From Polaromonas sp. (GTDB lineage Bacteria > Pseudomonadota > Gammaproteobacteria > Burkholderiales > Burkholderiaceae_C), in assembly GCF_030682935.1 (NCBI RefSeq), contig NZ_JAUXNA010000347.1, positions 1-62,642 of the forward strand: a stretch of 62,642 nt of DNA, read 5' to 3'. Positions 1,923 through 18,574 of this stretch are shown here, piece after piece. Below the pieces are notes generated by a model. That model was not told the origin of the DNA and did not search any database. It saw nothing but the letters and a program-made list of their open reading frames with translations. Position numbers and translations under genes: made by a program. How positions within the stretch are numbered: position 1 is the stretch's first letter; every line of letters starts with the position of its first letter.

Positions 1923-2219
1923 ATGTCCGAACCGACCCTTCAGACTTCATCCACACCGGCTGATGCAGCCCTGCTGCTTGAAGTCGCCGAACTGGTGGTG
2001 AGCGCCTTGAATCTCGAAGTGGCTGCAGCCGACGTGCAAGCGGACGAGCCGCTGTATGGCGACGGACTGGGTCTGGACTCCATCGATATCCTTGAAATCG
2101 CGCTCGTGGTCTCCAAGCGCTATGGCCTGCAGCTGCGCGCCGACCAGGAGGACAACCACGCCATCTTCCATTCGCTACGCAGCCTGAGCGACCATATCGC
2201 CGCCCAGCGAACCCAGTGA
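1923..2219 (+). CDS. acyl carrier protein of the aryl-polyene-like cluster
   Basis: A 98-residue acidic acyl carrier protein. The DGLGLDSIDILEIA motif places the phosphopantetheine-carrying serine at about residue 53. It would carry the growing polyene chain for the ketosynthase, ketoreductase and dehydratases downstream. It is the first gene of a run in which each stop overlaps the next start (GTGA at 2216). Described aryl-polyene clusters usually have two ACPs; only this one is evident here. I found no dedicated phosphopantetheinyl transferase in the window. Confidence 0.9.
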   Translation: MSEPTLQTSSTPADAALLLEVAELVVSALNLEVAAADVQADEPLYGDGLGLDSIDILEIALVVSKRYGLQLRADQEDNHAIFHSLRSLSDHIAAQRTQ

Positions 2220-2887
2220 AAGTCGAGCTGAGGACACAGCTAAAACAAGCCTGCCGCTGGGGCGCTGTCCTCATGCTGGGCACGGCCTATGCAGTGCTCT
2301 CCCATTGGGCGGCCGCGTCAGCAGAGCCCGATCTGCTCGACGCCCTGGTCGCCATCGTTCCGCCGCTCGGGCTGGGCTTTGTGATGGCCTGGCGTTCGCC
2401 GCGGCGCGCCGTCGGGCTGGCTTTGTTCCTTGCGGCCTGCGCCGCGCTCTATGGCATCAGTGGCTGGCTGGTAGCACATTACAACTGGGTCTTTTTGCTG
2501 CAGCATGCAGGCGTGTATGCATTGCTCTGCGTGGCCTTCGGCCGGACCCTGCAGGGCGGCCAGACGCCGATGATTTCGCGCTTTGCCCGCATCGTGCACG
2601 GCGAGCTTTCGCCTTCGCTCATCCGCTACACGCGGTCCGCCACCTGGGCTTGGGCCTTTTATTTTGGCGGCATTGCAGGACTTTCGCTGCTGCTGTTCTG
2701 GCTCGCACCCGTCCCCCTCTGGTCGGCATTTGCCAACCTTCTGGGCATTCCCCTGCTGGTGCTGATGTTCGCCGGCGAGTATGCCGTGCGCTGCTACGTG
2801 CTACCGGCCGCTGAGCGGGCCGGCCCACTTGACGCCATCCGCGCTTACCGGCAAGCCTCCGCAGAGGGTGCTGCGCGCCGGCCATGA
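2216..2887 (+). CDS. multi-pass membrane protein (COG4648-like) of the pigment cluster
   Basis: A 223-residue hydrophobic protein with about six predicted membrane segments, such as those around GAVLMLGTAYAVLSHW, VAIVPPLGLGFVMAW and YFGGIAGLSLLLFWLAPV. It starts at GTG, overlapping the ACP stop by four bases (GTGA), and ends overlapping the ligase start (ATGA), so the three are probably translationally coupled. Similar small integral membrane proteins sit next to the ACP and acyl-ACP ligase in aryl-polyene and xanthomonadin-type clusters. Their biochemical role is unknown. Assignment rests on context and topology. Confidence 0.75.
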   Translation: MKVELRTQLKQACRWGAVLMLGTAYAVLSHWAAASAEPDLLDALVAIVPPLGLGFVMAWRSPRRAVGLALFLAACAALYGISGWLVAHYNWVFLLQHAGVYALLCVAFGRTLQGGQTPMISRFARIVHGELSPSLIRYTRSATWAWAFYFGGIAGLSLLLFWLAPVPLWSAFANLLGIPLLVLMFAGEYAVRCYVLPAAERAGPLDAIRAYRQASAEGAARRP

Positions 2888-4263
2888 CCACTTTTCCGCT
2901 CGTCACGCATCCCCATGCTGAAGACGTCCTGGCCTGGAGCCATGGCAAGCCCATCACCGTCGCGCATTTTCTGGCCGACGTCAGGCAGCTGGCCGCCGCC
3001 TTGCCTGCGGGCCGTCATGTCCTCAACGCCTGCGGCGACCGCTACCGGTTTGCGGTCGGCATGGCCGCCGCCCTGCTGGCCGACAAGATCAGCCTGCTGC
3101 CGCCCACGCTGACGCCCGAGATGGTGCGCCAGGTCAAGGATTTTGCACCTGACGTGTTTTGCCTGACGGACCAGCCGCAGTCCATCGCTCTGCCTCGGCT
3201 TGCATGGGCAGATGCCGTGACAGCGCGCGTGCCGGCCGGGGCTGGCACGCAAACTGGCAAGCACGACATTCCGGAGATTCCCGCCTCGCGAACGGCAGCC
3301 ATCGTGTTCACCTCGGGCTCGACCGGCGCGCCTGTTGCGCACCGCAAAAGCTGGGGCGGACTGGTGAGCAGCGTGCGCGCCGAAGCCGCCCGGCTCGGTT
3401 TGCTTGACGGGCGGCGCCACAGCATTGTGGCCACGGTCCCGCCGCAGCACATGTTTGGCTTTGAGTCCAGCATGCTGGTCGCGCTGCAAAGCGGTGCCGC
3501 GATGAGCGCCGCCCGGCCGTTTTACCCGGCCGACATCTGCTCGGCACTGGCAGCGGCGACGCGCCCCTGCATGCTGGTCACCACGCCCGTGCACTTGAAG
3601 GTACTGTTGGCGTCGGGCCTGGACATTCCCTTGCCCGATCTCGTGCTGTCGGCGACCGCGCCCATGCCGCCGCAGTTGGCGCTGGCAACCGAGGCCCGCC
3701 TGCAGGCGCCCCTGCTCGAAATCTACGGCTCGACCGAGACCGGCCAGATCGCCTCCCGCCGCACAACCGAAACCGCTGAGTGGACGCTTTTCCCGGACGT
3801 CCTGCTCAGCGCTGCGCAGGGGCGCATCTGGGCCTCGGGCGGGCATGTCGGGCAGGCCACGCCCATGGCCGATGAGCTCGAACTGGTCAATTCCGAGCGC
3901 TTTTTGCTGCACGGCCGCACCGCCGACCTCATCAACATCGCAGGCAAACGCAGCTCGCTCGACTACCTGAACCACCAGCTCAATGCCGTTCCGGGCGTGC
4001 TCGACGGCGCATTTTTCATGCCCGATGAGGCTGATGACGATGGCGACACCGTGACCCGCCTGATGGCCTTTGTGGTGGCACCCGGCATGACGGCCTCCAC
4101 CCTGCTGACTGCCTTGCGGGAACGTATTGATGCCATTTTCATCCCGAGACCGCTGGTGCTGCTGGATGGCCTGCCTCGCAACAGCACCGGCAAGTTGCCG
4201 CGCGGCACGCTGGTCGCGCTGGCGCACGAGCACCAGCGAAAAGGCGCAGTCCATGCACGCTGA
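2884..4263 (+). CDS. AMP-dependent acyl/aryl-ACP ligase
   Basis: This 459-residue protein is an ANL-superfamily adenylating enzyme. The phosphate-binding TSGSTGAP (143-150), the YGSTETGQ core motif and the C-terminal LPRNSTGKLPRG with its catalytic lysine are all visible. In aryl-polyene pathways this enzyme activates the starter acid and loads it onto the ACP. At 459 residues it is shorter than standard acyl-CoA synthetases, as is usual for these cluster ligases. It overlaps the upstream gene by ATGA and the downstream hotdog gene by 11 bases. The starter acid is not identifiable from sequence. Confidence 0.87.
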   Translation: MTTFPLVTHPHAEDVLAWSHGKPITVAHFLADVRQLAAALPAGRHVLNACGDRYRFAVGMAAALLADKISLLPPTLTPEMVRQVKDFAPDVFCLTDQPQSIALPRLAWADAVTARVPAGAGTQTGKHDIPEIPASRTAAIVFTSGSTGAPVAHRKSWGGLVSSVRAEAARLGLLDGRRHSIVATVPPQHMFGFESSMLVALQSGAAMSAARPFYPADICSALAAATRPCMLVTTPVHLKVLLASGLDIPLPDLVLSATAPMPPQLALATEARLQAPLLEIYGSTETGQIASRRTTETAEWTLFPDVLLSAAQGRIWASGGHVGQATPMADELELVNSERFLLHGRTADLINIAGKRSSLDYLNHQLNAVPGVLDGAFFMPDEADDDGDTVTRLMAFVVAPGMTASTLLTALRERIDAIFIPRPLVLLDGLPRNSTGKLPRGTLVALAHEHQRKGAVHAR

Positions 4264-4582
4264 AACCACGCTCCGCATTTCGCCAGACCACCCGGCTTTT
4301 GCCGGTCATTTTCCGGGCGCGCCCATTGTGCCGGGGGTGGTGTTGCTCGACGCCGCTGTACACGCCGTGCTGCAGACATTGCGCCCCGCGGCATCAGGGG
4401 ACGGCGATCGGCCCGGCACCGCCTGCCAGATCAGCGCTGCCAAATTCCTCAGCCCGGTCGGCCCGGGCGAGACGCTGACCATTTCCTGCACCACCTCCGC
4501 CTCGGGCAGCACGCGCTTTGACATTTCAAGCGGCAGCCGCAAAGTAGCCACGGGCACGCTGGTGTTGCCGCCAGGGTCATGA
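4253..4582 (+). CDS. hotdog-fold 3-hydroxyacyl-ACP dehydratase (ApeI-like)
   Basis: A 109-residue FabZ/FabA-type hotdog protein. The start at 4253 (MHAETTLRIS) lies inside the ligase end and gives the expected N-terminus; the longer frame upstream is not conserved-looking. The motif HFPGAPIVPGVVLLD at about 19-33 matches the dehydratase substrate-binding strand and helix. It is expected to dehydrate 3-hydroxyacyl-ACP to the trans-enoyl form during polyene building, together with the second dehydratase at 12191. Overlaps of 11 bases upstream and ATGA downstream mark it as operonic. Confidence 0.85.
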   Translation: MHAETTLRISPDHPAFAGHFPGAPIVPGVVLLDAAVHAVLQTLRPAASGDGDRPGTACQISAAKFLSPVGPGETLTISCTTSASGSTRFDISSGSRKVATGTLVLPPGS

Positions 4583-5550
4583 ACAAAGCGTGCAAGGCCG
4601 ATCGATCAGGCAGCGCTGGATGGAAGCACCGTCCCGAGCGCAGCAGCCTGTTGATGCTGCGCCTGATGACCTGGATTTCGCTGCGGCTGGGCAGAGGAAC
4701 CAGCCGCCTCGTCCTTTACGGAATCGCGGCTTACTTTTTGGCGTTTGCCCCGGCGGCGCGGCGCATGTCGCGCGCTTATTTGCGGCGCGTGCTCAAGCTG
4801 CCATCGCCCGCGGCAGTTGGCTGGCGACATCTGTTCCGGCATTTCCTGAGTTTCGCGTCGGTGATCCACGACCGTGTCTATCTGCTCAACGAGCGCTTCG
4901 ATCTGTTTGATATTCGCGTTCACAACAAGGCGCTCATAGACGATCTCGTGGCCGATGGCCAGGGCGTGTTCCTGATAGGCGCACACATGGGAAGCTTCGA
5001 AGTGCTTCGCGCGATGGGCCGCAAGCAGCACGGCCTGCGCGTAGCGATGGTGATGTACGAAGAAAATGCGCGCAAGCTCAACGCGGCGCTAAGCGCCATC
5101 AATCCGAATGCGCAGCAAGACGTCATTGCACTCGGCCATATCAACTCGATGATCCAGGTCCATGCGCTGCTGGACCATGGCACCGTCATCGGCATGCTGG
5201 GCGACCGCTCGCTGGGCAACGACGAGACCCGTGCGCTTGATTTCCTGGGCGATCCGGCCGAGTTGCCGCTGGGCCCGTTCAGGATGGCCGCGATCCTGAA
5301 GCGCCCGGTCCTGTTCATGACGGGGCTGTACCGCGGCGGCAACCGTTACGACATCCACTTCGAACCCCTCGCCGATTTCTCAGTGCTGCCGCCGCGTGGC
5401 CGTGCGCTGGCGGTGCAGACTGCCATGACACGCTATGCTGCGCTGATGGAGCAATACTGCTACACGGCGCCCTACAACTGGTTCAATTTTTTTGACTTCT
5501 GGCGAGCGCCTGCGCCGCGTCAAGCCAAGCCTTCCACAGACATCACATGA
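4579..5550 (+). CDS. LpxL/HtrB-type lipid acyltransferase
   Basis: A 323-residue member of the lysophospholipid/lipid A acyltransferase (LABLAT) group. It has a hydrophobic N-terminal segment (LVLYGIAAYFLAFAP), then GAHMGSFEVLRA, whose H-x4-E is the catalytic pair equivalent to HX4D/E, and later GMLGDRSLGN. In aryl-polyene clusters such enzymes are thought to attach the polyene or a partner acyl chain to an outer-membrane glycolipid anchor. It starts with ATGA overlap on the hotdog gene. The acceptor is unknown. Confidence 0.85.
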   Translation: MNKACKADRSGSAGWKHRPERSSLLMLRLMTWISLRLGRGTSRLVLYGIAAYFLAFAPAARRMSRAYLRRVLKLPSPAAVGWRHLFRHFLSFASVIHDRVYLLNERFDLFDIRVHNKALIDDLVADGQGVFLIGAHMGSFEVLRAMGRKQHGLRVAMVMYEENARKLNAALSAINPNAQQDVIALGHINSMIQVHALLDHGTVIGMLGDRSLGNDETRALDFLGDPAELPLGPFRMAAILKRPVLFMTGLYRGGNRYDIHFEPLADFSVLPPRGRALAVQTAMTRYAALMEQYCYTAPYNWFNFFDFWRAPAPRQAKPSTDIT

Positions 5551-6188
5551 CACTCTCCGTTCACACCTCAACACAGGCTGTCACGCAGGCCCGCACGCTG
5601 GGCGGCCGCCTGCGAGGCCTGGCCTTCACGCTGGCCGCGGGCCTGGCGCTTGCCACGCTGAGCCCGGCAGCCTTCGCCGCCTGGGACCTCCAGCAGCTGA
5701 TGGAAACGCTTGCACAGAACAAGTCCGGCCGCGCCCGCTTTGTCGAGACAAAACACATGGCCATGCTCGACAAACCCGTCGAGTCGTCGGGAAACCTGCT
5801 CTACAGCGCGCCGGACCGGCTCGAAAAACGCACGCTCAAACCTCAAGCCGAGTCCATGATTGTGAATGGCGACGAGCTGGTCATAGAACGTGGCCGCCAA
5901 AAATACCAGCTGCAATTGCAAAGTTACCCGGAACTGGCGGCTTTCATCGACAGCATTCGCGGCACCCTCGCGGGCGACCGCAAGGCACTGGAACGCAACT
6001 ACCGGCTGAGCCTGGAGGGCACAGCCGAACGCTGGACCCTGCAACTGCTGCCGCTGGATGCAAAGATGCAGGCCGTGGTACAGCGCATTCGCATCGCGGG
6101 CATGCGCGATGACGTGCGCAGCATAGAAATTACCCAGGCCGATGGCGACAGTTCGTTGATGACCATCGAAAAACTGGCAACGCCGTGA
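5547..6188 (+). CDS. LolA-like periplasmic lipid carrier of the pigment cluster
   Basis: This 213-residue protein has an N-terminal signal sequence (hydrophobic AFTLAAGLALATLSPAAFA, likely cleavage near residue 44) followed by a LolA/LolB-like fold region: WDLQQLMETLAQNKSGRARFVETKHM, then RLEKRTLKPQAE. Cluster-encoded LolA-like proteins accompany MMPL exporters in aryl-polyene and xanthomonadin loci and presumably move the product through the periplasm. It overlaps both neighbours. It is unlikely to be the housekeeping lipoprotein carrier, given its context and divergence. Confidence 0.85.
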   Translation: MTLSVHTSTQAVTQARTLGGRLRGLAFTLAAGLALATLSPAAFAAWDLQQLMETLAQNKSGRARFVETKHMAMLDKPVESSGNLLYSAPDRLEKRTLKPQAESMIVNGDELVIERGRQKYQLQLQSYPELAAFIDSIRGTLAGDRKALERNYRLSLEGTAERWTLQLLPLDAKMQAVVQRIRIAGMRDDVRSIEITQADGDSSLMTIEKLATP

Positions 6189-8533
6189 TGACCAAGCCTC
6201 GCCGCCGTGGCATCACGGCCATCACGTTGTGGCTGGCGTTTTTGTTGACCTGCGTTGTCCTTATCAGCCGTACGCAGTTCACCACAGACTTGTCGGGATT
6301 TCTGCCGCGCACCCCCACGCCCGAGCAGCAACTGCTCATGGATCAGTTGCGTGACGGCCTGGCCTCGCGCCTGATTCTGGTTGGCATTGAAGGCGCCGAT
6401 GCGCCCACGCGAGCCCGGCTTTCCAAACAAAGCGCCCAGCGCCTGCGCGCCGACCCCGCTTTTGTCACGGTCAACAATGGCGAGCCCGTGAACACCGAGC
6501 GCGACCGGATTTTCCTGTTCAACAACCGTTACCTGCTCAGCCCTGCGGTGACACCTGCACGCTTCAGCGTGGAAGGCCTGCATGCAGCCCTGAGCGACAG
6601 TATCGACCTGCTCGCCTCGCCCGCCGGGCTGCTGGTCAAGTCCATGCTGCCACGCGACCCGAGCGGTGAAATGGTGAAATTACTTGACCAACTCAACAGC
6701 GGCACCCACCCAAAGCTGGTCGATGGTGCCTGGGCATCACGCGACGGTGCGCGCGCCTTGATGCTGATACAAACGCGCGCGGCGGGGTCCGACACCGATG
6801 CCCAACAAAGCGCCATGGCGGCCATCCGGCAAGCGTTTGACCAGGCATCCAGCGCAAGCCCTGACGCCAGGCTGGTGATGACCGGTCCCGGCGTGTTTTC
6901 CGTGACGTCACGCGACACCATCAAAAGTCAGGTCACCCGCCTGTCCCTCATCAGTGTCTTGCTCATTGCAACGCTGCTATTGCTGGTTTACCGCTCCTTC
7001 AGCGCACTGGCATTGGGTTTTTTGCCCGTCATCAGCGGTGCGCTGGCAGGCGTCGCCGCAGTCAGTCTGGGCTTTGGGGCGGTGCACGGCATCACCCTGG
7101 GGTTTGGCACCGCGCTGATCGGCGAGGCGGTGGACTATTCAATTTACCTGTTTGTGCAATCCGAACAAAGCGGTGCAGACCAGCAGAACTGGATCAAGCG
7201 CTTCTGGCCCACCATCCGCCTCGGTGTGCTGACCTCGATAGCCGGCTTTGCTTCGCTGCTGTTGTCCGGCTTTCCGGGGCTGGCGCAACTCGGTCTGTAT
7301 GCGATTGCCGGGCTGGTAGCCGCCGCCATAGTGACCCGTTTCGTCCTGCCTCATCTGCTGCCAGCGACATTTCGCATCCGTGATGTAGCGGCCATCGGCG
7401 TCGGCCTGTCCCGCCTGACACAGCGCGCCGCTGCGCTGCGCTGGCCGGCCGCGATACTGTTGCTGGCGGCCTGCGCCATCCTCATCCAGAACCGTGCCAG
7501 CTTGTTGAATGACAAGATATCGTCGTTAAGTCCGGTGTCGCAGGCCGAGGTGGCGCTCGATGAGCGTCTGCGCGCCGACATGGGCGCACCCGATGTGCGT
7601 TATCTGGTGGTGGTATCGGGCACGAGTCGGGAATCTGTATTGCGCTCGTCCGAGCAAGTTTCTGCGGTGCTGCAAACGCAAGTCGATCAGGGCGAACTCG
7701 CCAGATTTGAAAGCCCGAGCTTTTATCTGCCCAGCACTGCAACGCAGCGTGCACGCCAGGCCAGCTTGCCCATGACGGCCTTGCTGGAATCGAACCTGGC
7801 ACAAGCGGTTCAGGGCTTGCCGGTGCGCGCGCAACTGTTTACGCCGTTTCTGGCCGATGTAGCCGCTGCGCGCAGCCAGCCCTTGCTGCAGGCGGCCGAC
7901 CTGGAACAGACCTCCATGGCCATGGCGGTCGATGCGTTGCTGATTCAGCAAGACCGCCGCTGGACGGCCTTGTTGCCGCTGACCGCACCCGAGGGCGTCA
8001 GCATCAAGGCCAACAAAATTCGCGCTGCGTTGAGCGCCACGGGTTTGCCGAATGTGCTGTTTGTGGACATGAAAGCCGAGTCGGATCGCTTGTATTCCGG
8101 CTACTTGCATGAAGCCATCCTGCTGTCACTGGGCGGACTGGTCGCCATTATCGGATTGCTGCTGGTGGTTTTTCGCTCGCCGATGCGCGTGCTACGCATC
8201 ATCGCGCCGCTGGCCGCCGCGGTCATCACCGTCATGGCGGGATTGGCCTTGTTTGGCCAGCAACTGATTATTCTGCATTTGGTGGGCTTGCTGCTGGTCG
8301 TTGCGGTGGGTTCCAACTACGCCCTGTTTTTTGATCGACCTGATCCGCGCACGCCGATCTCGCCGCGCACCCTGGCCTCCATGTTGTTTGCCAACCTCAC
8401 CACCGTCGCGGGTTTTGGCCTGCTGGCGTTTTCCAAGGTGTCGATATTGCAGGCCATGGGCGTCACCGTGGCACCAGGCGTCATCCTGGCACTGATCTAT
8501 GCTGCGATTTTCGCCAGGAAAACCCATGCATAG
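6188..8533 (+). CDS. MMPL/RND-family exporter
   Basis: A 781-residue inner-membrane exporter of the MMPL/RND type. It is built as two repeats, each with a large periplasmic loop followed by a cluster of membrane helices (for example VTRLSLISVLLIATLLLLVY in the first, LGGLVAIIGLLLVVF in the second). The loci of aryl polyenes and xanthomonadins encode this exporter type to translocate the lipid-linked pigment. The ATG at 6188 shares a base with the LolA-like stop; a GTG at 6185 is an alternative start. It overlaps the deacetylase gene by eight bases. Confidence 0.9.
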   Translation: MTKPRRRGITAITLWLAFLLTCVVLISRTQFTTDLSGFLPRTPTPEQQLLMDQLRDGLASRLILVGIEGADAPTRARLSKQSAQRLRADPAFVTVNNGEPVNTERDRIFLFNNRYLLSPAVTPARFSVEGLHAALSDSIDLLASPAGLLVKSMLPRDPSGEMVKLLDQLNSGTHPKLVDGAWASRDGARALMLIQTRAAGSDTDAQQSAMAAIRQAFDQASSASPDARLVMTGPGVFSVTSRDTIKSQVTRLSLISVLLIATLLLLVYRSFSALALGFLPVISGALAGVAAVSLGFGAVHGITLGFGTALIGEAVDYSIYLFVQSEQSGADQQNWIKRFWPTIRLGVLTSIAGFASLLLSGFPGLAQLGLYAIAGLVAAAIVTRFVLPHLLPATFRIRDVAAIGVGLSRLTQRAAALRWPAAILLLAACAILIQNRASLLNDKISSLSPVSQAEVALDERLRADMGAPDVRYLVVVSGTSRESVLRSSEQVSAVLQTQVDQGELARFESPSFYLPSTATQRARQASLPMTALLESNLAQAVQGLPVRAQLFTPFLADVAAARSQPLLQAADLEQTSMAMAVDALLIQQDRRWTALLPLTAPEGVSIKANKIRAALSATGLPNVLFVDMKAESDRLYSGYLHEAILLSLGGLVAIIGLLLVVFRSPMRVLRIIAPLAAAVITVMAGLALFGQQLIILHLVGLLLVVAVGSNYALFFDRPDPRTPISPRTLASMLFANLTTVAGFGLLAFSKVSILQAMGVTVAPGVILALIYAAIFARKTHA

Positions 8534-9329
8534 TGGACGCTGGCACCCGACGCTGTTGATCCGCGCAAGCCTCGTGCTGCATCTGCTGGCCTTGCTGGCG
8601 GTGATCACTGAACCCGGGCAATGGCGTTGGGCGCTGGGCGCGGTCGTGGTCAATCACCTGCTGCTAGCCGGCATGGGCCTGTGGCCGCGCAGCCACTGGC
8701 TGGGGCCGAACTGGACACGGCTGCCCGCCGCCGCCACGGCCAGAAATGAAATTGCCCTGACCATCGACGATGGCCCCGATCCCATCGTCACCCCGCAGGT
8801 GCTGGACCTGCTGGATCGATATGCAGCCCGGGCCACCTTTTTCTGCATCGGCGAACAAGCCGCGCGCTACCCGGATTTGTGCCGCGAAATCGTGCGCCGC
8901 GGCCATGCCGTCGAAAACCATAGCCAGCATCATCGCCATCATTTTTCGCTGATGGGCCCGCGCGCCATGACGCGTGAAATACAAGCGGCACAAGACACGC
9001 TGACCACCATTACGGGCCAGCGTCCCTTGTTTTTCCGCGCGCCAGCCGGCTTGCGCAATCCTTTTCTCGACCCGGTGCTGACCCGGCTGGGGCTACAGCT
9101 TGCCAGTTGGTCGGCACGCGGTTTTGACACCCGGATTGGCGATGCAGGGCGCGTTAAAACCCAATTATTGCGTGGCCTGCGAGCGGGTGCCATTTTGCTG
9201 GTGCACGATGGCAACGCGGCGCGCACGCTGGACGGCCACCCGGTTATTCTCGATGTGTTGCCCGCCCTGCTGGCGTCCGCTGCGGCAGCCCGTCTGCGTT
9301 TTGTCACCCTGCGCCAGGCCCTTCCATGA
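8526..9329 (+). CDS. polysaccharide deacetylase (NodB-homology) family protein
   Basis: A 267-residue protein with two N-terminal hydrophobic segments and a NodB-type domain starting at about residue 75. The catalytic/metal motif TIDDGPDP is at 79-86; FFRAPAGLRNP and LLVHDGN are later family motifs, and a His-rich NHSQHHRHHF stretch sits at the H-x3-H metal site. It would remove an N- or O-acetyl group from a glycan or glycolipid. It overlaps the MMPL gene, so it belongs to the operon, yet deacetylases are not part of the classical aryl-polyene set. Its substrate is unknown. Confidence 0.85.
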   Translation: MHSGRWHPTLLIRASLVLHLLALLAVITEPGQWRWALGAVVVNHLLLAGMGLWPRSHWLGPNWTRLPAAATARNEIALTIDDGPDPIVTPQVLDLLDRYAARATFFCIGEQAARYPDLCREIVRRGHAVENHSQHHRHHFSLMGPRAMTREIQAAQDTLTTITGQRPLFFRAPAGLRNPFLDPVLTRLGLQLASWSARGFDTRIGDAGRVKTQLLRGLRAGAILLVHDGNAARTLDGHPVILDVLPALLASAAAARLRFVTLRQALP

Positions 9330-11324: not shown

Positions 11325-12161
11325 ATGACGCAGCATTCAGCCCATGGCGCGACGCCCCTCACGGTCTTTGTCGAAGGCATCGGCCTGCTGGGCCCCGGCC
11401 TGTCCAGCTGGGCGCAAGGCCGCCGGCACCTTGACGGTAATTTGCCCTACGAAGCCGGACGATGCGTGCTGCCATTGCCGATGGCGCTGCCGCCAGCCGA
11501 GCGGCGCCGCGCCGGCGCCGTGGTCAAGGTCTCGCTGGCCGTCGGCCAGGAAGCCGTGGCGGCTTCGGGTCTGCAGGCGAATGCCCTGCCTTCGGTTTTT
11601 TCATCGTCCAGCGGCGACGCCATCAATTGCCACGAGATCTGCAGCGCGCTGGCGTCAGGCGACCGGCTGATCTCGCCGACCCGCTTTCACAACTCGGTGC
11701 ACAACGCCTCTTCGGGTTACTGGAGCATTTCGAGTGGCGCCATGGCCTCCTCGTCGGTGCTGTGCGCGCGCGATGGAAGTTTTTCGGCCGGCCTGCTGGA
11801 AGCGATGACGCAGGTGATGGTTGAGCAGACGGCGGTCTTGCTGGTCGCCTACGACACCGATTATCCCGAGCCACTGCGCAGCGTGCGGCCCCTGCCCGAT
11901 ACCTTTGGGGTGGGTCTGGTGCTGGCCCCCCAGCGCAGCGAACGCAGCCAGGCCCAATGGACCCTGGCGCCAGCCGCCTGCTTGAGCGGCGCGGCGGCAG
12001 ACCGCCTGGACGATTGCGCCCTCGAACAGCTCCGCAAGAGCATTCCCGCCGCGCGCTGCCTGCCGCTGCTTCGCAGTGTTGCTGCGCAACGCTCGGGCGA
12101 GGTCGTGCTGGACTACCTGGAGGGCCTGCAGTTGGCCGTGCAGGTCGCGCCATGCCGCTAA
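11325..12161 (+). CDS. ketosynthase-like protein, probable chain-length-factor partner
   Basis: A 278-residue protein with a short beta-ketoacyl synthase-like N-terminal fold (VFVEGIGLLGPGLSSW; FSSSSGDAINCHEI; NSVHNASSGYWSI). No cysteine sits in the position expected for the nucleophile and no C-terminal KS histidine motifs are present, so it is probably catalytically inactive. Such half-size proteins pair with the ketosynthase in aryl-polyene and xanthomonadin systems and are compared with chain-length factors. It starts nine bases after the ketosynthase. The pairing is inferred from adjacency and length. Confidence 0.82.
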   Translation: MTQHSAHGATPLTVFVEGIGLLGPGLSSWAQGRRHLDGNLPYEAGRCVLPLPMALPPAERRRAGAVVKVSLAVGQEAVAASGLQANALPSVFSSSSGDAINCHEICSALASGDRLISPTRFHNSVHNASSGYWSISSGAMASSSVLCARDGSFSAGLLEAMTQVMVEQTAVLLVAYDTDYPEPLRSVRPLPDTFGVGLVLAPQRSERSQAQWTLAPAACLSGAAADRLDDCALEQLRKSIPAARCLPLLRSVAAQRSGEVVLDYLEGLQLAVQVAPCR

Positions 12162-12190: not shown

Positions 12191-12733
12191 GTGCTTCCAA
12201 ACGCGCCTTCCACACTGCAGCACGACGAGATTGCCCGCCGCATTCCCCACCAGGGCAGCATGTGCCTGCTCGACCGCGTGACCGCCTGGGACACCATCCA
12301 AATCCGCTGCGAAGCCAGCAGTCACCGGGAGGCGAATAATCCCTTGCGCGCGCACGGACGGCTGGGCGCGTCTTGCGGCATTGAATACGCCGCGCAGGCG
12401 ATGGCGGTGCATGGCGCCCTGATCGCTGAAGCCCAGGCCAGCGCCGGCAAGGCGAGCCCTGCCCCGCAAATCGGCTACCTGGCCAGCGTTAGAAGCGTGA
12501 CGCTTCATGTCGAAAGGCTCGATGACCTGAGCGCTGCGCTCACCATCCATGCCGAACGCATGAGCGGTGACGACCGCACCATTCTTTACAGCTTCACGGT
12601 GCAGGCCGGGCTTGCGCTGCTTCTGTCAGGACGCGCCGTGGTCGTGCTCGATGCAGCGGGTCTGCTGCTGCCGGGCCGCACCGCCATACCCGTCGAGTCT
12701 CCGAACGGGTCAACAACTTCCGGGACCTTATGA
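12191..12733 (+). CDS. hotdog 3-hydroxyacyl-ACP dehydratase (ApeP-like)
   Basis: A 180-residue hotdog-fold dehydratase. The family signature HDEIARRIPHQGSMCLLDRV lies at the N-terminus and GIEYAAQAMAVHGAL forms the central helix. It acts with the other dehydratase (4253) to give conjugated double bonds. It begins at GTG 12191, and no upstream ATG fits the family start. The stop overlaps the fabG start (ATGA). High family confidence. Confidence 0.87.
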   Translation: MLPNAPSTLQHDEIARRIPHQGSMCLLDRVTAWDTIQIRCEASSHREANNPLRAHGRLGASCGIEYAAQAMAVHGALIAEAQASAGKASPAPQIGYLASVRSVTLHVERLDDLSAALTIHAERMSGDDRTILYSFTVQAGLALLLSGRAVVVLDAAGLLLPGRTAIPVESPNGSTTSGTL

Positions 12734-13467
12734 GCGAACCAACCCCTCGAAAGCGTGCACTGGTCACCGGCGGCAGTGGCGGCATCGGCTCGGCGATTTG
12801 CCGGCAACTGGCCGCCGACGGTTTTCATGTCATCGTGCACGCCAATCGCGGCCTTGAGGCCGCCCAAACGCTGGTGGACGCCATCAAGGCAGCGGGCGGA
12901 CAAGCACAAGCGCTGGCTTTCGACGTCACCGATGCAGCCGCGACAGCCACCGCACTGGAGGCCCTGCTGGCGGACGGACCGATCCAGGTGGTGGTGAACA
13001 ACGCCGGCATTCACGACGACGCCGTCTTTCCGGGCATGCAGCTCAGGCAATGGCAGCAAGTCATTGACGTGTCGCTGAACGGTTTTTTCCATGTCACCCA
13101 GCCTTTGATGATGCCGATGATCCGCACGCGTTGGGGACGCATCATCAACATCACGTCGGTCGCCGCCGTGGCCGGCAACCGCGGCCAGGTCAACTATTCG
13201 GCAGCCAAGGGCGCGCTGCATTCGGCCACCAAGTCGCTCGCGCTGGAGGTGGCCAGCCGCGGCATCACCGTCAATGCCGTGGCGCCCGGCATCATCGCAA
13301 CGCCCATGAGCCAGGGCACCTTTGATGCCCCCGCCATTGCCCAGCTGGTTCCGATGAAGCGCGCCGGCCGGCCCGAAGAAGTGGCGGACCTCGTCAGTTT
13401 TCTGGCCTCGGAACGCGCGGCCTACATCAGCGGCCAGATTATCTCCATCAACGGCGGCATGATTTAA
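12730..13467 (+). CDS. fabG: 3-oxoacyl-ACP reductase (FabG-like SDR)
   Basis: A 245-residue short-chain dehydrogenase. The NADPH-binding VTGGSGGIGSAI is at the N-terminus, NNAGI in the middle, and a catalytic serine (INITSVAAVAG) and Y-x3-K (YSAAKGA) follow. It ends with the usual FabG tail (SGQIISINGGMI). It reduces the 3-keto group after each condensation of the polyketide chain. Stop/start overlap couples it to the upstream dehydratase. The symbol denotes the family; this is a cluster paralogue rather than the fatty-acid synthesis copy. Confidence 0.9.
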   Translation: MSEPTPRKRALVTGGSGGIGSAICRQLAADGFHVIVHANRGLEAAQTLVDAIKAAGGQAQALAFDVTDAAATATALEALLADGPIQVVVNNAGIHDDAVFPGMQLRQWQQVIDVSLNGFFHVTQPLMMPMIRTRWGRIINITSVAAVAGNRGQVNYSAAKGALHSATKSLALEVASRGITVNAVAPGIIATPMSQGTFDAPAIAQLVPMKRAGRPEEVADLVSFLASERAAYISGQIISINGGMI

Positions 13468-13480: not shown

Positions 13481-14257
13481 ATGAAAACCCCTGAACCGAC
13501 TCCCGGGGTGCATGCACCTCATGGCCCGCTCACCGATTACTACCAGACCGAGCAGGATCGGCAAGCGTATTTACGCAAGATTTTCGACAATACGGCCGCG
13601 GATTACGACCGCATCGAGGCGATGCTGGCATGGGGATCCGGCTCCCGCTATCGGCGTCAGGCGCTGGTTCGGGGCGGCTTGAAAGCGGGCATGAAAGTGC
13701 TCGATGTGGGCGTGGGAACCGGGCTGGTCGCAGCGCAAGCCTGCATTCTGACCGGCAATCCCGCCCTGGTCACCGGGGTTGACCCCAGCCCCGGCATGAT
13801 GGCTGCAAGCAAGCTGCCCAAGACCATGGTGTTGCTGGAAGGCCGGGCTGAATCATTGCCTTTCCCCGACAATCATTTTGATTTTTTGAGCATGGGCTAT
13901 GCACTGCGCCACATCAGCGATCTGGGCGTGGCGTTTGCAGAGTTTGAACGGGTCTTGAAGCCCGGTGGCCGTCTGTGCATACTCGAAATTACCCAGGCAA
14001 AAAGCCGTTTTGGGCGATGGCTGCTCAAAAGCTATATGCGCGGGGTGATACCGTTACTAACGCGATTCGTTTCCAGGCGAAAAGATACCGCCACGATCTG
14101 GCGCTATTACTGGGACAGCATAGAAGCCTGCGTCCCTCCCGAACAAGTCATGGCCACACTCAGCGCCGCGGGACTGATGCAGGTTAAGCGACATCTGGAA
14201 GTTGGCGTATTTTCGGAATACCAGGCAATCAAAACAGGCCCCGCCCAGGCTGACTGA
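13481..14257 (+). CDS. class I SAM-dependent methyltransferase (UbiE-like)
   Basis: A 258-residue methyltransferase with the Rossmann motif LDVGVGTGLVAAQA (motif I), an acidic LVTGVDPSPGM (motif II) and MGYALRHISD. A ribosome-binding site AAAGGAA lies just upstream. Methyltransferases in aryl-polyene and flexirubin clusters are thought to modify the aryl head group, which fits here. UbiE-like enzymes also C-methylate quinones, so a role outside pigment synthesis is possible, though its position between fabG and the antiporter favours the cluster. Confidence 0.85.
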   Translation: MKTPEPTPGVHAPHGPLTDYYQTEQDRQAYLRKIFDNTAADYDRIEAMLAWGSGSRYRRQALVRGGLKAGMKVLDVGVGTGLVAAQACILTGNPALVTGVDPSPGMMAASKLPKTMVLLEGRAESLPFPDNHFDFLSMGYALRHISDLGVAFAEFERVLKPGGRLCILEITQAKSRFGRWLLKSYMRGVIPLLTRFVSRRKDTATIWRYYWDSIEACVPPEQVMATLSAAGLMQVKRHLEVGVFSEYQAIKTGPAQAD

Positions 14258-14272: not shown

Positions 14273-15595
14273 ATGACCACAGCCATTAACAGCGCCACCC
14301 ACGCAACCGAAGCGCTGCTCTTTTTTACCCTGCTGCAACTCACCGTGATCGTGCTCGCCGCGCGTATCGGCGGCGGGATCGCGTTGCGTATGGGGCAATC
14401 GGCCGTGGTCGGTGAAATCGTGATCGGCATCCTGCTCGGGCCTTCACTGTTCGGGCTGCTGGCCCCCGATGTATTTCAATATGTGTTTCACTCCGGCGCA
14501 CCAGAGCCGATGCAGATGCTGTCGCAAATCGGCCTGGTGCTGCTGATGTTTCAGATTGGCCTGGAATTCGATTTCGCACACCTGGCCGAGCGCCGCAATC
14601 GCCGCGTCGTGATGTGGGTGGCGGGTGCCAGCCTGGTGGTGCCGTTTGCACTGGGTTTTGCCGTCGGCCAGGTCAGCGCGCCCGCGCTCTCTCCCGGCGC
14701 ACATCCGCTGGGGTCTGCGCTATTTGTGGCGACTGCCTTCTCGATTACGGCATTGCCGATACTCGGACGCATCATGATGGAATTCAACATGACACGCACA
14801 CCGATTGGCGTCATCGCCATCAGCGCGGCGGCGATCAATGACGTCATCGGCTGGCTGCTGCTGGCGCTCATCACCACACTCACCCTGTCGGCGTTCGATG
14901 CTGCCAGCTTTGCGGTCAAAGTGGTACTGGTGCTGGGGTTTTTCCTGTTCAGCTGGTTTGGCGTGCGCCCTGTCATGAAACGCATCCTGCATCGTTGCGA
15001 TGCAGGCTCGGGGGCGCTCTCGCACAACCTGCTCGGTATCGTGCTGGCGGCCATTTTCCTATCCGCCATGAGCACTTACCAGCTCGGCATTTTCGCCATC
15101 TTTGGCGGCTTCATGATGGGCGTGTTGCTGTATGACGAACATGCTTTTGTGCGCACCTGGAAGGCGCGCATCAGCCCGTTTGTCATGGTGTTTTTCCTGC
15201 CCATCTTTTTTACCTATACCGGCCTGCGCACCAATATCGGCAGCCTCGACAGTGCGGCGGCGTGGGGCTGGTGCGCGCTCATCGTCTTTCTCGCGACAGT
15301 GGGAAAGTACGGCGGCGCCTACGCGGCGGCACGTGTGGCGGGGATGAACCACTTTGAGGGCAAGGTCATGGGCATCATGATGAACACCCGCGCGCTGATG
15401 GAATTGATCGTGATCAATGTCGGCTACGACCTGGGCGTGATCTCGCAACAGATGTTCACCATCCTGGTGATCATGGCGATATTCAGTACCGTCATCACCA
15501 GCCCGCTGTTGCGGCGCTGGCTGCCGCGTATCGGTATTCCGGTGCCGCCGCGTTCAAAAGCGGCCGAGCGCGCGGCGCATGAGCAGCACGGGTAA
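14273..15595 (+). CDS. CPA2-family cation:proton antiporter
   Basis: A 440-residue integral membrane protein with about 12 helices. It has the KefB/NapA-type opening (LAARIGGGIALRMGQSAVVGEIVIGILLGPS), then IGLVLLMFQIGLEFD and a late NTRALMELIV motif, all features of monovalent cation:proton antiporters. There is no cytosolic TrkA domain, so it is the short form. Its 3' end overlaps the facing glycosyltransferase gene by 42 bases. A link to pigment export or periplasmic ion balance is conjecture. Confidence 0.85.
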   Translation: MTTAINSATHATEALLFFTLLQLTVIVLAARIGGGIALRMGQSAVVGEIVIGILLGPSLFGLLAPDVFQYVFHSGAPEPMQMLSQIGLVLLMFQIGLEFDFAHLAERRNRRVVMWVAGASLVVPFALGFAVGQVSAPALSPGAHPLGSALFVATAFSITALPILGRIMMEFNMTRTPIGVIAISAAAINDVIGWLLLALITTLTLSAFDAASFAVKVVLVLGFFLFSWFGVRPVMKRILHRCDAGSGALSHNLLGIVLAAIFLSAMSTYQLGIFAIFGGFMMGVLLYDEHAFVRTWKARISPFVMVFFLPIFFTYTGLRTNIGSLDSAAAWGWCALIVFLATVGKYGGAYAAARVAGMNHFEGKVMGIMMNTRALMELIVINVGYDLGVISQQMFTILVIMAIFSTVITSPLLRRWLPRIGIPVPPRSKAAERAAHEQHG

Positions 15596-16348
15596 GCGCA
15601 GCACAAATCCGGCCAGGAGGCGCGAATGCATCCAGGTGAGCAGCAGGTTGTCGCGCAGGTAGTTGAAATGCGAGACGCCGCCTTCATCGGCACGGAAATA
15701 GCGCACCGTCGCGGGCAGATTGACGGGTTTGACGCCGCGCCAGCACATGCGCACCACAGCCTCGGGGTCGAAATCAAAGCGGCGCATCCAGCGCTGGCCA
15801 CCCATCACCTGGCGCAGCGGCTCAATCGGGTAGACACGAAAACCGAACAGCGAATCGCCAATCCCCGCCCAGAGCGTTTCCAGATTGGCCCACCAGTTCG
15901 ACACCTTGCGGCCGTTGACACGCAGGCGCGGCGCGTCGGCCGCGAACACCGGCACACCCAGCACCATGGCAGCGGGCTGCGCGCTTGACGCGGCCATGAA
16001 GTCGGGGATCAGGTGGGCCGGATGCTGGCCATCGGAGTCCATGGTCAGCACATGCGTGAAGCCTTGCGCCGCGGCCAGATCCAGCCCGTGCAGCACGGCA
16101 GCGCCCTTGCCGACGTTGTGCGGCAGCACGAGCACCCGCAAACCTTCGTCCTGCGCCGCCATCGCCTGCAGGCCTTCGGCGCTGGCGTCGGTACTGCCGT
16201 CCACCACCACCCAGACCGGCGTCCACTGCGCGCGTGCCGAACGCACCGTTTCATACACCTTGGGGCCGGGATTGTAGCTGGGAATGAGCACAAGATGCGT
16301 GCGGGAAACGGTGGATGGGGAGCGGGACAAGGAAGCATTCATCGGCAT
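15554..16348 (-). CDS. GT2-family glycosyltransferase
   Basis: A 264-residue glycosyltransferase family 2 protein. The fold begins with LVLIPSYNPGPKVYETV, has VVVDGSTDAS for sugar-nucleotide binding, and carries the DxD-type metal motif in LTMDSDGQHPAHL. A short hydrophobic C-terminus follows. I chose the ATG at 16348 (MPMNAS), with AGG a few bases upstream; ATG 16342 is also possible. GT2 genes are standard in aryl-polyene and xanthomonadin loci, where they probably glycosylate the lipid anchor. It is tail-to-tail with, and overlaps, the antiporter gene. Confidence 0.87.
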   Translation of the reverse strand: MPMNASLSRSPSTVSRTHLVLIPSYNPGPKVYETVRSARAQWTPVWVVVDGSTDASAEGLQAMAAQDEGLRVLVLPHNVGKGAAVLHGLDLAAAQGFTHVLTMDSDGQHPAHLIPDFMAASSAQPAAMVLGVPVFAADAPRLRVNGRKVSNWWANLETLWAGIGDSLFGFRVYPIEPLRQVMGGQRWMRRFDFDPEAVVRMCWRGVKPVNLPATVRYFRADEGGVSHFNYLRDNLLLTWMHSRLLAGFVLRLPVLLMRRALGRF

Positions 16349-16382: not shown

Positions 16383-17198
16383 TCAATTCGGCGGCGCCGA
16401 AACAGGAAAGTCGGGCAATTGCGCATGTGCCAGCTCGGACTGGAAGTAGCGCTCAAGCTCAATGACAAAGCGCCCGGTATGCTGGGGCGGCTCAAACCGC
16501 TTACCGAGGCGGACTCGGTAAGTGATGGGCATTCTCGGCGTCCACAGTACCGACCAGCCTTTTCCCAGAAAACCCGAATTGGTTTCAATGAAGACCGTCT
16601 GTACCGGCACACCCGCATGTTTGGCAATCAGTCCGGCCGTCCCCTGAACCGGGCCGACAGGAAACCGGGTGGTGCGGGTGCCCTCGGGAAACAGCAGTAA
16701 ATGGCTGCCCTGGTGTAAATCGGCAACAGCCAATTGCACCATGGTGCGAAGCGGCGTGTTGCGGATGTAGCCCGCCAGCCGGGCACCTGCACCGAAAAAA
16801 ACGCTGTTGACGATGTCGGCCTTCATGATGCAGGCTGCATCGGGCAGCCGCGACAAAATCATGACAGCATCGAGCAGCGACGGATGGTTGGGCGCAATGA
16901 TCATGGCCGGGCCGCCTTGCAGCGCATCGAGCTCTTCCAGGTCGAAGCGACAGGCTCCCATGAAAACCAGCAAGCGTAAATAAGCCCGGAACGTCCTGGC
17001 GATGAGCTTGCGGCCGATCCGCTTGCTCAGCACCCGCGGCAAAATCACGCGCATCGGAATCGCCAGCAACGAGATGGTGAGGCAGATCACGCCCAGCACC
17101 ACGAAGCCCAGGTGCAGCCTGGCGGGGTCAATCAGGGCCCGGCGAACGGCGTTCAGCGTAAGGTGCTTGTTCAGAACGGTATTTCCCTTGTTTTCCAT
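16383..17198 (-). CDS. PlsC-type lysophospholipid/glycolipid acyltransferase
   Basis: A 271-residue acyltransferase. The catalytic motif NHPSLLDAV (NHx4D type) is at about residues 104-112 and the substrate-binding FPEGTRTTRF lies about 65 residues later. There are hydrophobic segments near the N-terminus. Proteins of this type sit in xanthomonadin/aryl-polyene clusters and are proposed to place acyl chains on the anchor lipid. It lies between the GT2 and flavoprotein genes on the same strand, so these three probably form one operon transcribed leftwards. Confidence 0.87.
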   Translation of the reverse strand: MENKGNTVLNKHLTLNAVRRALIDPARLHLGFVVLGVICLTISLLAIPMRVILPRVLSKRIGRKLIARTFRAYLRLLVFMGACRFDLEELDALQGGPAMIIAPNHPSLLDAVMILSRLPDAACIMKADIVNSVFFGAGARLAGYIRNTPLRTMVQLAVADLHQGSHLLLFPEGTRTTRFPVGPVQGTAGLIAKHAGVPVQTVFIETNSGFLGKGWSVLWTPRMPITYRVRLGKRFEPPQHTGRFVIELERYFQSELAHAQLPDFPVSAPPN

Positions 17199-17221
17199 AA
17201 AGTCGGTGCGTGCGGCGGCTC

Positions 17222-18574
17222 TTAACGCGCCGCCGGCTCTGAGCCCTCAACGACGCGAATGTTGGCCTTGCGCAAGCGCATGGCCTGCCACGAGCGCCTG
17301 AAGTTCCAGGCTGATGCAATGTAAAAAATACCCTTGAGCGCTGCGATCGACCGCCAGATCGGTGTTTTTCCAAAAATATCGCCGGCCAGCATCGACAGCA
17401 GCGCTTCCTTCACGCGCCACACATTGCTGGGCGCCATGAACATGTCGCGCATGGCCGGGTTCGTCACCCGGTAAATAAACCACGAAAACTCCTTGGGTCC
17501 CAGCCGTACCTGGCGGTCAAAATGCGCCAGCGCCGACACGGCTTTTGCGGGTTCGCGCAAGCAGGCATCCACCGTCTCGGCCCCGACAAAGCCGCCCTGC
17601 ATGGCCAGCATGACGCCTGACGAAAACACCGGGTCAATGAAGGTGAAGGCATCGCCAATCAGCAGGTAGTTGGGGCCGTGCGTTTGCTCGCAGGCGTACG
17701 AGAAATTGCCGGTCGCTGCCACATCGGACGACAGCGTTGCGTGGACCAGCCGCTCGGCCAGCGCAGGGCACATGGCAATCGTGTCAAGGAAAAAATCCTT
17801 GACCGGCTTGCTCCGACTCTGCAGGTAATGCGGCCACACCACGGCACCGATGCTGGTGGTGCCGTCAGCCAGCGGGATCAGCCAGAACCAGCCGTGCTCG
17901 AACCAGAAGATCGTGATGTTGCCTTCGTCCTGGCCCGGGTGCCGGACGGCTCCGGTGAAGTGGGCATACAGCGCCGAGCTGTTGTGCCTGGGGTTGCGGC
18001 GCTTGGTGTCGAACTGCTTGCCCAGCAAAGTGTCGCGGCCCGAAGCGTCCACCACAAAGCGCGCGCGCCAGCGCTGGGAGCGTCCATCGTCGTGCTCGGC
18101 ATGAACGGTGGCGCCGCTGTGGTCAGGCGCAAAAGCCACATCGCGAACCCTGCAGCCTTCAATCACTTCAGCGCCCAATCTGGCGGCATTGCGGATCAGG
18201 ATTTCGTCGAACTCGGAACGCCGCACCTGGTAGGAAAACGGCATGGATTTGTCCCAGGCGTCGCCGAACTTGAAAGTCTGGGTCTTGCTGTCATGCCAGG
18301 GCGAGACAAATTCGGCGCCCCATTTCTCCATGCCGATGGCCTTGACGGCCTCTGCCACCCCGAGTTTTTCAAGCAGCGGCAAGTTGGCCGGCAGCAGCGA
18401 CTCGCCAATGTGAAAACGCGGATGATGTTCTTTTTCAAGGACCACGACCTTGTGCCCCCGTTGCGCCAGCAGCGCCCCTACCGTGGATCCCGCCGGACCA
18501 CCGCCAATCACCAGGACATCGCACTCGCTCAGGGCGGCAGGGGATGAGAGGGTCGGTGAGCACTGCTCGGTCAT
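17222..18574 (-). CDS. FAD-dependent halogenase/oxidoreductase-like protein of the pigment cluster
   Basis: A 450-residue flavoprotein. It has a dinucleotide motif VIGGGPAGST at 22-31, GESLLP at 58-63, a lysine at about 84 in EKWGAEF, the sequence GWFWLIP at 228-234, and DAFTFIDPVFSSG in the FAD-binding end. GWxWxIP is the signature of flavin-dependent halogenases, which makes halogenation of an aryl-polyene head group plausible because xanthomonadins are brominated. Non-halogenating oxidoreductases can carry it too. The start at 18574 has AAGGA eight bases upstream. The open frame continues upstream into unrelated remnant sequence. Confidence 0.82.
   Translation of the reverse strand: MTEQCSPTLSSPAALSECDVLVIGGGPAGSTVGALLAQRGHKVVVLEKEHHPRFHIGESLLPANLPLLEKLGVAEAVKAIGMEKWGAEFVSPWHDSKTQTFKFGDAWDKSMPFSYQVRRSEFDEILIRNAARLGAEVIEGCRVRDVAFAPDHSGATVHAEHDDGRSQRWRARFVVDASGRDTLLGKQFDTKRRNPRHNSSALYAHFTGAVRHPGQDEGNITIFWFEHGWFWLIPLADGTTSIGAVVWPHYLQSRSKPVKDFFLDTIAMCPALAERLVHATLSSDVAATGNFSYACEQTHGPNYLLIGDAFTFIDPVFSSGVMLAMQGGFVGAETVDACLREPAKAVSALAHFDRQVRLGPKEFSWFIYRVTNPAMRDMFMAPSNVWRVKEALLSMLAGDIFGKTPIWRSIAALKGIFYIASAWNFRRSWQAMRLRKANIRVVEGSEPAAR

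What the first reader, a model, noticed from the sequence alone, without database searches (positions are those of the whole stretch)
1923..18574. Aryl-polyene/xanthomonadin-like cluster with extra deacetylase and AUR1-like PAP2 genes
Seen: ACP, ligase, two hotdog dehydratases, ketosynthase pair, FabG, MMPL exporter, LolA-like carrier, two acyltransferases, GT2, methyltransferase and a halogenase-like flavoprotein, mostly overlapping. Known: this gene set makes outer-membrane-anchored aryl polyenes or xanthomonadins. Unusual: a NodB-type deacetylase and a PAP2/AUR1-like protein sit in the operon, there is only one ACP, and no ammonia-lyase or chorismatase is present. Inference: the product may be a polyene attached to a novel aminoglycan or phospholipid-type head group.
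Basis: partly seen in the sequence, partly recalled or inferred. Interest (0 to 1): 0.72.

Follow-up and report, generated by a model that had tools for sequence, protein, structure and literature searches.

The report
Pigment-lipid cluster with finishing enzymes
This looks like a real gene cluster for a yellow membrane pigment lipid in a Polaromonas-type bacterium; its deacetylase was already in print, but the membrane phospho-lipid enzyme beside it seems to be a widespread part of the pathway that we did not find described.

Summary
Window 1923-18574 carries an aryl-polyene/xanthomonadin cluster of the type published as arc (arcuflavin) in Azoarcus. The deacetylase is not new: Table 1 of PMC3949708 lists arcN, a polysaccharide deacetylase, there. 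The PAP2/AUR1-like protein is the new element.

Neither gene is a bystander. Of 14 genus genomes with KS2, 14 have a close deacetylase and 13 PAP2; of 22 genus genomes without the cluster none has a close copy of either. Of 370 class genomes, all 11 with strong PAP2 and all 14 with strong deacetylase are among the 86 with KS2. In 68 of 80 loci PAP2 lies directly behind the deacetylase. The 7 loci with PAP2 alone lie in genomes with a cluster-type ketosynthase elsewhere.

The PAP2 model (pLDDT 89.8) aligns with Aur1, SMSr and an inositol-phosphorylceramide synthase over 192-201 of 242 residues, with lipid phosphatases over 149-186 at slightly lower Z. I read both proteins as finishing enzymes of the pigment's lipid anchor. 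Whether PAP2 removes a phosphate or transfers a phospho-head group is open; no chemistry could be tested. New variant of a known kind.

The parts
1923..2219 (+). acyl carrier protein
   Evidence: PF00550 1.7e-6; NF006617 133 bits, over its cut-off of 70
2216..2887 (+). membrane protein (arcU position; relative of hypothetical protein WP_001350104.1 in the E. coli Ape cluster)
   Evidence: no Pfam or NCBIfam match; 26% over 121 aa to E. coli CFT073, E 1e-9; found in relatives whose locus reaches that far
2884..4263 (+). AMP-dependent acyl/aryl ligase
   Evidence: PF00501 3.5e-23
4253..4582 (+). hotdog dehydratase 1 (FabA/ApeI-like)
   Evidence: PF07977 2e-10, PF22818 1.2e-4 but below its cut-off
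4579..5550 (+). LpxL-type acyltransferase
   Evidence: PF03279 2.5e-12; 31% to part of the E. coli GT2/acyltransferase protein
5547..6188 (+). LolA-like carrier
   Evidence: PF19574 7.6e-29; nearest NCBIfam LolA2_flexi, below its cut-off
6185..8533 (+). MMPL/RND exporter
   Evidence: PF03176 8.5e-16
8499..9329 (+). NodB-type (CE4) deacetylase with N-terminal hydrophobic segment; overlaps the MMPL gene (start ATG 8499, or ATG 8526)
   Evidence: PF01522 1.6e-29; D90, D91, H141, H145, R180, H236 invariant in 17 of 17; solved relatives are mostly GlcNAc-type deacetylases; start codons
9333..10061 (+). PAP2/AUR1-like membrane protein
   Evidence: PF01569 and PF14378 over cut-off; 59 of 59 aligned relatives match both at E 0.001; S158, H160, H205, D209 invariant in 59 of 59; fold
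10122..11315 (+). ketosynthase; probable CTG start at 10122
   Evidence: PF00109/PF02801; N-terminus aligned with relatives
11325..12161 (+). KS2, chain-length-factor-like
   Evidence: PF13723 4e-27; the only such hit in the assembly
12191..12733 (+). probable second dehydratase
   Evidence: below-cut-off ApeP-like match, E 0.064; conserved position
12730..13467 (+). FabG-like ketoreductase
   Evidence: PF00106 3.7e-55
13481..14257 (+). UbiE-like methyltransferase
   Evidence: PF01209 6.2e-28; below the cut-off of every UbiE-type NCBIfam model shown (25 of 29 shown); often, not always, in the cluster
14273..15595 (+). Na+/H+ antiporter (arcG in the arc cluster)
   Evidence: PF00999 6.2e-50; optional in relatives
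15554..16348 (-). GT2 glycosyltransferase
   Evidence: PF00535 4.7e-21; start by first plausible ATG
16383..17198 (-). PlsC-type acyltransferase
   Evidence: PF01553 1e-12; 29% over 148 aa to the E. coli Ape lysophospholipid acyltransferase
17222..18574 (-). flavin halogenase-like protein
   Evidence: PF04820 1.9e-30, PF01494 3.4e-22; best NCBIfam model CmlS halogenase, 191 bits against a cut-off of 900, so the reaction is not settled

Best explanation
An arc-type aryl-polyene lipid cluster. Ligase and ACP load an aryl starter; KS/KS2, FabG and the dehydratases extend it to a polyene; GT2, PlsC and the LpxL-type acyltransferase attach it to a lipid anchor; MMPL and LolA move it to the outer membrane. 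The deacetylase and PAP2 are dedicated finishing enzymes of that anchor. I propose that GT2 adds an N-acetylhexosamine to a lipid, the NodB-type deacetylase frees the amine, and PAP2, an AUR1/sphingomyelin-synthase-like membrane enzyme, acts on a phosphate of the lipid: either transferring a phospho-head group or removing a phosphate. Shown here: the gene set, the conserved catalytic residues, the co-occurrence and the predicted fold. Inferred: every substrate, the order of steps, and the side of the membrane.
For: Gene set. Genus, 37 genomes: 14 of 14 KS2 genomes with a close deacetylase, 13 of 14 with PAP2; 0 of 22 cluster-less genomes with a close copy of either; G035's contig ends behind PAP2. 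Class, 370 genomes, the window's own included: 11 of 11 strong PAP2 and 14 of 14 strong deacetylase genomes are among the 86 with KS2 (hypergeometric 6e-8 and 6e-10). 68 of 80 PAP2 loci have the deacetylase directly upstream. All 7 PAP2-only loci lie in genomes with a cluster-type ketosynthase. Rearranged clusters keep PAP2 (L058, L168-L174). Pairwise distances of MMPL, deacetylase and PAP2 correlate at 0.76-0.86 over 46 loci, against 0.46-0.53 with KS and 0.60-0.69 with the ligase. Deacetylase residues conserved; solved relatives are mostly GlcNAc-type deacetylases. PAP2 model aligns with SMSr, an IPC synthase and Aur1 over 192-201 residues. Precedent: HexD, a polysaccharide deacetylase, appears needed to deacetylate an N-acetylhexosyl glycolipid (PMC10128005 passages).
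Confidence: 0.6

Rival explanations
1. PAP2 is an ordinary lipid phosphatase (PgpB/LpxE-like): it removes the phosphate from a PlsC-made phosphatidate-like anchor so that GT2 can glycosylate the diacylglycerol.
Against: The KxxxxxxRP motif of canonical PAP2 phosphatases (recalled) is absent from the alignments; the longest and best fold matches are head-group transferases.
Confidence: 0.4
2. PAP2 is a head-group phosphotransferase (AUR1/SMS-like): it moves a phospho-alcohol from a phospholipid to the pigment glycolipid, so the product is a phosphoglycolipid.
For: Top three fold matches are Aur1-Kei1, SMSr and an IPC synthase, aligned over 192-201 residues at 11-22% identity; PF14378 over cut-off; H160, H205 and D209 invariant in 59 of 59.
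Against: Fold does not prove function; Z differs from bacterial phosphatases by about 1; donor and acceptor unknown.
Confidence: 0.4
3. The deacetylase acts on peptidoglycan or a separate polysaccharide and is only co-regulated with pigment synthesis.
For: Solved relatives include peptidoglycan and chitin deacetylases; in 6 of 11 class genomes without PAP2 it stands without core cluster genes.
Against: All 14 class genomes with strong hits carry KS2; in the window it overlaps the exporter gene; listed in the arc cluster; HexD precedent on a glycolipid.
Confidence: 0.15
4. Deacetylase and PAP2 are chance or housekeeping neighbours of the cluster.
For: PAP2 stands without cluster genes in 7 of 80 loci.
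Against: Those 7 genomes all carry a cluster-type ketosynthase; co-occurrence in genus and class.
Confidence: 0.03

Closest known systems
Arcuflavin (arc) cluster of Azoarcus sp. BH72 (PMC3949708: section 18 with Table 1 and passages seen)
   Same: ketosynthase pair, dehydratases, reductase, Na+/H+ antiporter, GT, acyltransferases, halogenase, a methyltransferase, deacetylase (arcN), exporter, LolA, ligase, single ACP arcV
   Different: arc lies in two loci, has a chorismatase (arcB), and dialkylresorcinol genes are part of the pathway; no PAP2 is listed; in the window PAP2 stands where some relatives have a second methyltransferase
Xanthomonadin clusters (Xanthomonas, in PMC3949708 passages; Lysobacter, PMC3691225 passages)
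   Same: type II synthase with unusual KS/CLF-like pair; halogenase in Xanthomonas
   Different: the passages I saw name no deacetylase or PAP2; the xanthomonadin cluster has a chorismate-utilizing enzyme, which the window lacks
E. coli CFT073 Ape cluster
   Same: relatives of ACP, membrane protein, ligase, dehydratase 1, LpxL-type and PlsC acyltransferases, LolA, MMPL, KS, KS2 and FabG
   Different: two ACPs, a thioesterase, glycosyltransferase and acyltransferase in one protein; no NodB-type deacetylase or PAP2 annotated there, and tblastn found none
HexSDF glycolipid system (PMC10128005 passages)
   Same: polysaccharide deacetylase that appears to N-deacetylate a hexosamine on a membrane glycolipid
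   Different: three-gene operon without polyene genes; Gram-positive
Aur1 / SMSr / IPC synthase (9ivc, 8ijq, 9vj4)
   Same: fold over most of the PAP2 model; H/H/D residues (recalled for Aur1)
   Different: no sequence relation found by profile search of solved structures at E up to 10; substrates of the window protein unknown

Membership tests
Aryl-polyene / xanthomonadin-type cluster | ketosynthase with KS2/chain-length-like partner side by side | tested here: met
   10122-11315 and 11325-12161
Aryl-polyene / xanthomonadin-type cluster | ACP, ligase, dehydratase, FabG, MMPL exporter and LolA carrier together | tested here: met
   the second dehydratase is only weakly supported
Aryl-polyene / xanthomonadin-type cluster | aryl polyene product | not testable with these tools
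   needs extraction, UV-vis and mass spectrometry
arc/xan subtype | chorismatase (XanB2/ArcB) supplying the starter | tested here: not met
   PF21168 (silent in all controls, but 134.6 bits for the sister-cluster enzyme) and that enzyme itself find nothing in the 89%-complete assembly; 4 of 60 relatives have a strong copy, two of them in the genus
arc subtype | NodB-type deacetylase in the cluster (arcN) | tested here: met
   8499-9329; Table 1 of PMC3949708
CE4/NodB deacetylase | DD, HxxxH, RxPxG and final H motifs (recalled names) | tested here: met
   D90 D91, H141 H145, R180, G184, H236 invariant in 17 of 17
NodB proper (TIGR04243) | score over the equivalog cut-off | tested here: not met
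   115 bits against 240
PAP2 superfamily | curated Pfam cut-off | tested here: met
   39.1 bits against 27.2; 59 of 59 aligned relatives match at E 0.001
Canonical PAP2 phosphatase | KxxxxxxRP motif (recalled) | tested here: not met
   no such invariant pair in A1 or A3
AUR1/SMS-like phosphotransferase | shared fold over the transmembrane domain, apart from phosphatases | tested here: inconclusive
AUR1/SMS-like phosphotransferase | head-group transfer activity | not testable with these tools
   needs enzymology

The most novel reading that the evidence does not exclude
Many Betaproteobacteria and Acidithiobacillus make a second class of aryl-polyene lipid: a pigmented amino-sugar phosphoglycolipid whose phospho-head group is installed by a dedicated AUR1/sphingomyelin-synthase-like transferase working with a glycolipid deacetylase as one envelope-side module (MMPL-deacetylase-PAP2), the two together giving a zwitterionic outer-membrane pigment lipid.
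Probability: 0.25. Interest if true: 0.65.

Novelty: new variant of a known kind. Interest (0 to 1): 0.45.

Why it matters
The anchor and its assembly are a poorly understood part of a widespread family of bacterial pigments. A PAP2/AUR1-like enzyme that follows the pathway through many genera, even when unlinked from it, gives a concrete gene to delete and a concrete prediction about phosphorus in the pigment lipid. The window's assembly also shows no recognised source of the aryl starter, a second testable gap.

Tried and rejected
Bystander neighbours: rejected on co-occurrence. A phosphoinositol head group suggested by the IMPase gene at 733-1791 next to an AUR1-like protein: set aside, because IMPase adjoins the cluster only in Polaromonas-type loci and is not found beside it in L043. 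A strict either-or rule between PAP2 and a second methyltransferase (MT2, L044:9377-10117): MT2 lies between deacetylase and ketosynthase in L044, L058, L194, L196 and L197 and beside the deacetylase in L046, L048, L049, L063 and L192, but 5 of 80 PAP2 loci also hold MT2, L058 has both, and of 11 class genomes with strong deacetylase and no PAP2 only 4 show a clear MT2, 3 a weak one (26-34%) and 4 none; so it is a tendency only. First PAP2 structure job, on 13 sequences, gave pLDDT 52.6 and was not searched. Profile searches of solved structures with PAP2 found nothing at E up to 1 and up to 10. A plain hydropathy scan of the deacetylase gave one clear N-terminal segment (18-36) and one inside the catalytic domain, not enough to place the active site. 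Literature: 'aryl polyene' with 'PAP2' gave 0 papers, 'aryl-polyene' with 'PAP2' 0, 'aryl polyene' with 'polysaccharide deacetylase' 1, seen as listing; this last search missed PMC3949708, whose abstract prints 'aryl-polyene', so such searches can miss things. A four-term search (arylpolyene, PAP2, polysaccharide deacetylase, phosphatase PAP2; two required) gave 33 papers, and none of the 20 listed holds both arylpolyene and PAP2. 'Polaromonas' with 'aryl polyene' gave 3, listing only. PMC11547657 and PMC9177418 were seen as passages only and gave no structure. bioRxiv and most subscription journals are not held; the structure preprint of aryl-polyene lipids (10.1101/2020.12.19.423268) was not held and I saw only that PMC8253772 and PMC9177418 cite it.


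Full report
What is there. The window lies in an assembly of 3.59 Mb in 403 contigs, 89% complete. Several same-genus genomes have contigs of the same length and place as named Polaromonas records (for example G025:C34, 192,427 bases, and L119; G028:C7, 134,617 bases, and L069), so I call it Polaromonas-type. From ACP to deacetylase neighbours overlap by 4 to 35 bases; deacetylase to PAP2 is 3 bases apart, PAP2 to the ketosynthase 60. GT2, PlsC and the flavoprotein run the other way. A membrane protein (2216-2887) and a Na+/H+ antiporter (14273-15595) complete the set.

Is it known? The gene set matches the arcuflavin cluster of Azoarcus sp. BH72. Table 1 of PMC3949708 (section 18 read) lists arcN as a polysaccharide deacetylase, arcM as a methyltransferase, arcG as a Na+/H+ antiporter and, in the arc loci, a single ACP, arcV. 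So the deacetylase and the single ACP are in print. PAP2 is not in that table. The annotated E. coli CFT073 Ape cluster has neither a NodB-type deacetylase nor PAP2; tblastn found a 12-residue chance match for the deacetylase and none for PAP2 at E up to 1.

Are the two genes part of the system? Genus level: of 37 genomes including the window's own, 14 have KS2. All 14 have a close deacetylase (53% identity or more) and 13 have PAP2; the exception, G016, carries a methyltransferase (MT2) in the same slot. G035 has deacetylase and PAP2 on a contig that ends there. None of the other 22 has a close copy of either, though several have distant deacetylase relatives. Outside the genus, G046, G059 and G060 have KS2 and deacetylase without PAP2; G058 has KS2 without either; G040, G043, G045 and G049 have weak KS2 hits. 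Gene order is the same in the genus loci as far as they reach, apart from G002, which is rearranged but keeps PAP2, and a second locus of G034 without PAP2.

Named genomes. One scan with the PAP2 alignment found 234 stretches encoding a relative, of which the best 80 were kept: Polaromonas, Rhodoferax, Gallionella, Thiobacillus, Sulfuriferula, Acidithiobacillus, a Zetaproteobacterium and others; L098 and L110 come from one assembly. In 68 of 80 the deacetylase is directly upstream; 78 have at least 900 bases there. KS follows within 500 bases in 50 of the 73 loci with room for it. 64 of 80 hold at least five of ten further cluster genes and 7 hold none. Those 7 (six Acidithiobacillus and L109) all lie in genomes with a ketosynthase 64-71% identical to the window's; for 6 of the 7 I fetched that place and it is a polyene cluster (the seventh, G063, was not fetched).

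Class level. In 370 genomes KS2 (PF13723) occurs in 86. PAP2 at 200 bits or more occurs in 11, all among the 86; a further 12 have hits of 59 bits or less, 3 of them with KS2. Deacetylase at 200 bits or more occurs in 14, all among the 86; at about 90 bits or more, 22 of 46 are. Hypergeometric chances are 6e-8 and 6e-10, too small because the genomes are related. Of the 11 PAP2 genomes, 8 have it within 15 kb of KS2 and 3 on another contig. In L168 and L169 PAP2 sits beside KS2, in L170-L172 just before KS, in L173 and L174 near the deacetylase and a methyltransferase. So PAP2 has been kept through several rearrangements. The deacetylase is less tightly placed: of 11 class genomes with a strong copy and no PAP2, 6 show no core cluster gene in the fetched stretch.

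Co-inheritance inside the cluster. Over 46 loci with all five proteins tested, pairwise distances correlate at 0.86 (MMPL-deacetylase), 0.76 (deacetylase-PAP2) and 0.76 (MMPL-PAP2), against 0.46-0.53 with KS and 0.60-0.69 with the ligase; no permutation of 500 reached any value. I read MMPL-deacetylase-PAP2 as one module concerned with the finished lipid.

What the deacetylase looks like. The CE4 residues are invariant in 17 of 17. It is not NodB itself (115 bits against 240). Solved relatives are mostly GlcNAc-type or chitin deacetylases. HexD of C. difficile suggests that such a protein can deacetylate a glycolipid: overproducing HexSF without HexD gave the acetylated lipid and no detectable deacetylated one (PMC10128005 passages).

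The starter. Some sister clusters carry a chorismatase between PlsC and the flavoprotein (L070:9132-10193, PF21168 134.6 bits; 17 of 80 loci hold one). The window has 23 bases there. No chorismatase, UbiC or aromatic ammonia-lyase was found in the assembly, which is 89% complete. Of 60 relatives, strong chorismatases occur in G002, G027, G059 and G060, with a 53-residue match holding one stop in G008 and a weak second match in G059. So 11 of the 14 genus genomes with KS2 show none at all.

Model. As in Best explanation: GT2 plus acyltransferases build the anchor, the deacetylase frees an amine, PAP2 acts on a phosphate. The first part follows from published proposals for ApeD and ApeJ (PMC8253772 passages) and from precedent; the PAP2 step is inference from fold and context. 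I hold phosphatase and transferase about equally likely.

Verdict. A known kind of cluster with one conserved component that I did not find described. Interest is moderate: the gene is well tied to the pathway and makes a sharp prediction, but the chemistry is untested.

Noticed in passing
window 10122: The ketosynthase has no ATG, GTG or TTG start: the aligned start codon is CTG. Over 63 N-termini (window and named loci) it is TTG 38, CTG 21, GTG 3, CTA 1, ATG 0; in 13 of the 21 CTG cases no usual start lies upstream in frame. ATG appears in the six Acidithiobacillus-type places and in G016 and G002.
   Followed up: partly
upstream of the ketosynthase in relatives of window 10062-10121: A conserved TTTGCTA stretch about 30 bases before the start (22 of 63 loci, at most 2 in 200 shuffles) resembles an extended -10 promoter element; the Azoarcus cluster is split into two loci near this point.
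   Followed up: partly
L073, L075, L086, L100, L106, L114, L109: PAP2 stands alone here, mostly with different neighbours in different species, though the genome has a cluster-type ketosynthase elsewhere.
   Followed up: partly
L044:9377-10117, L058, L194, L196, L197: A second methyltransferase occupies the PAP2 slot between deacetylase and ketosynthase.
   Followed up: partly
window 733-1791: An inositol monophosphatase-family gene adjoins the cluster in Polaromonas-type loci only.
   Followed up: no
L072:10869-12938: A 689-residue protein, ATPase-like by eye, is inserted between PAP2 and KS; eleven other loci also have PAP2 and KS 1 to 5.1 kb apart.
   Followed up: no
L113, L128: Two PAP2 matches in one cluster.
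   Followed up: no
L036 and L063 (genome G034): One genome with two different deacetylase-bearing polyene loci, one with PAP2 and one with MT2; contamination is possible (6%).
   Followed up: no
window 60001-62000: G+C drops to 0.47 against 0.59-0.67 elsewhere.
   Followed up: no
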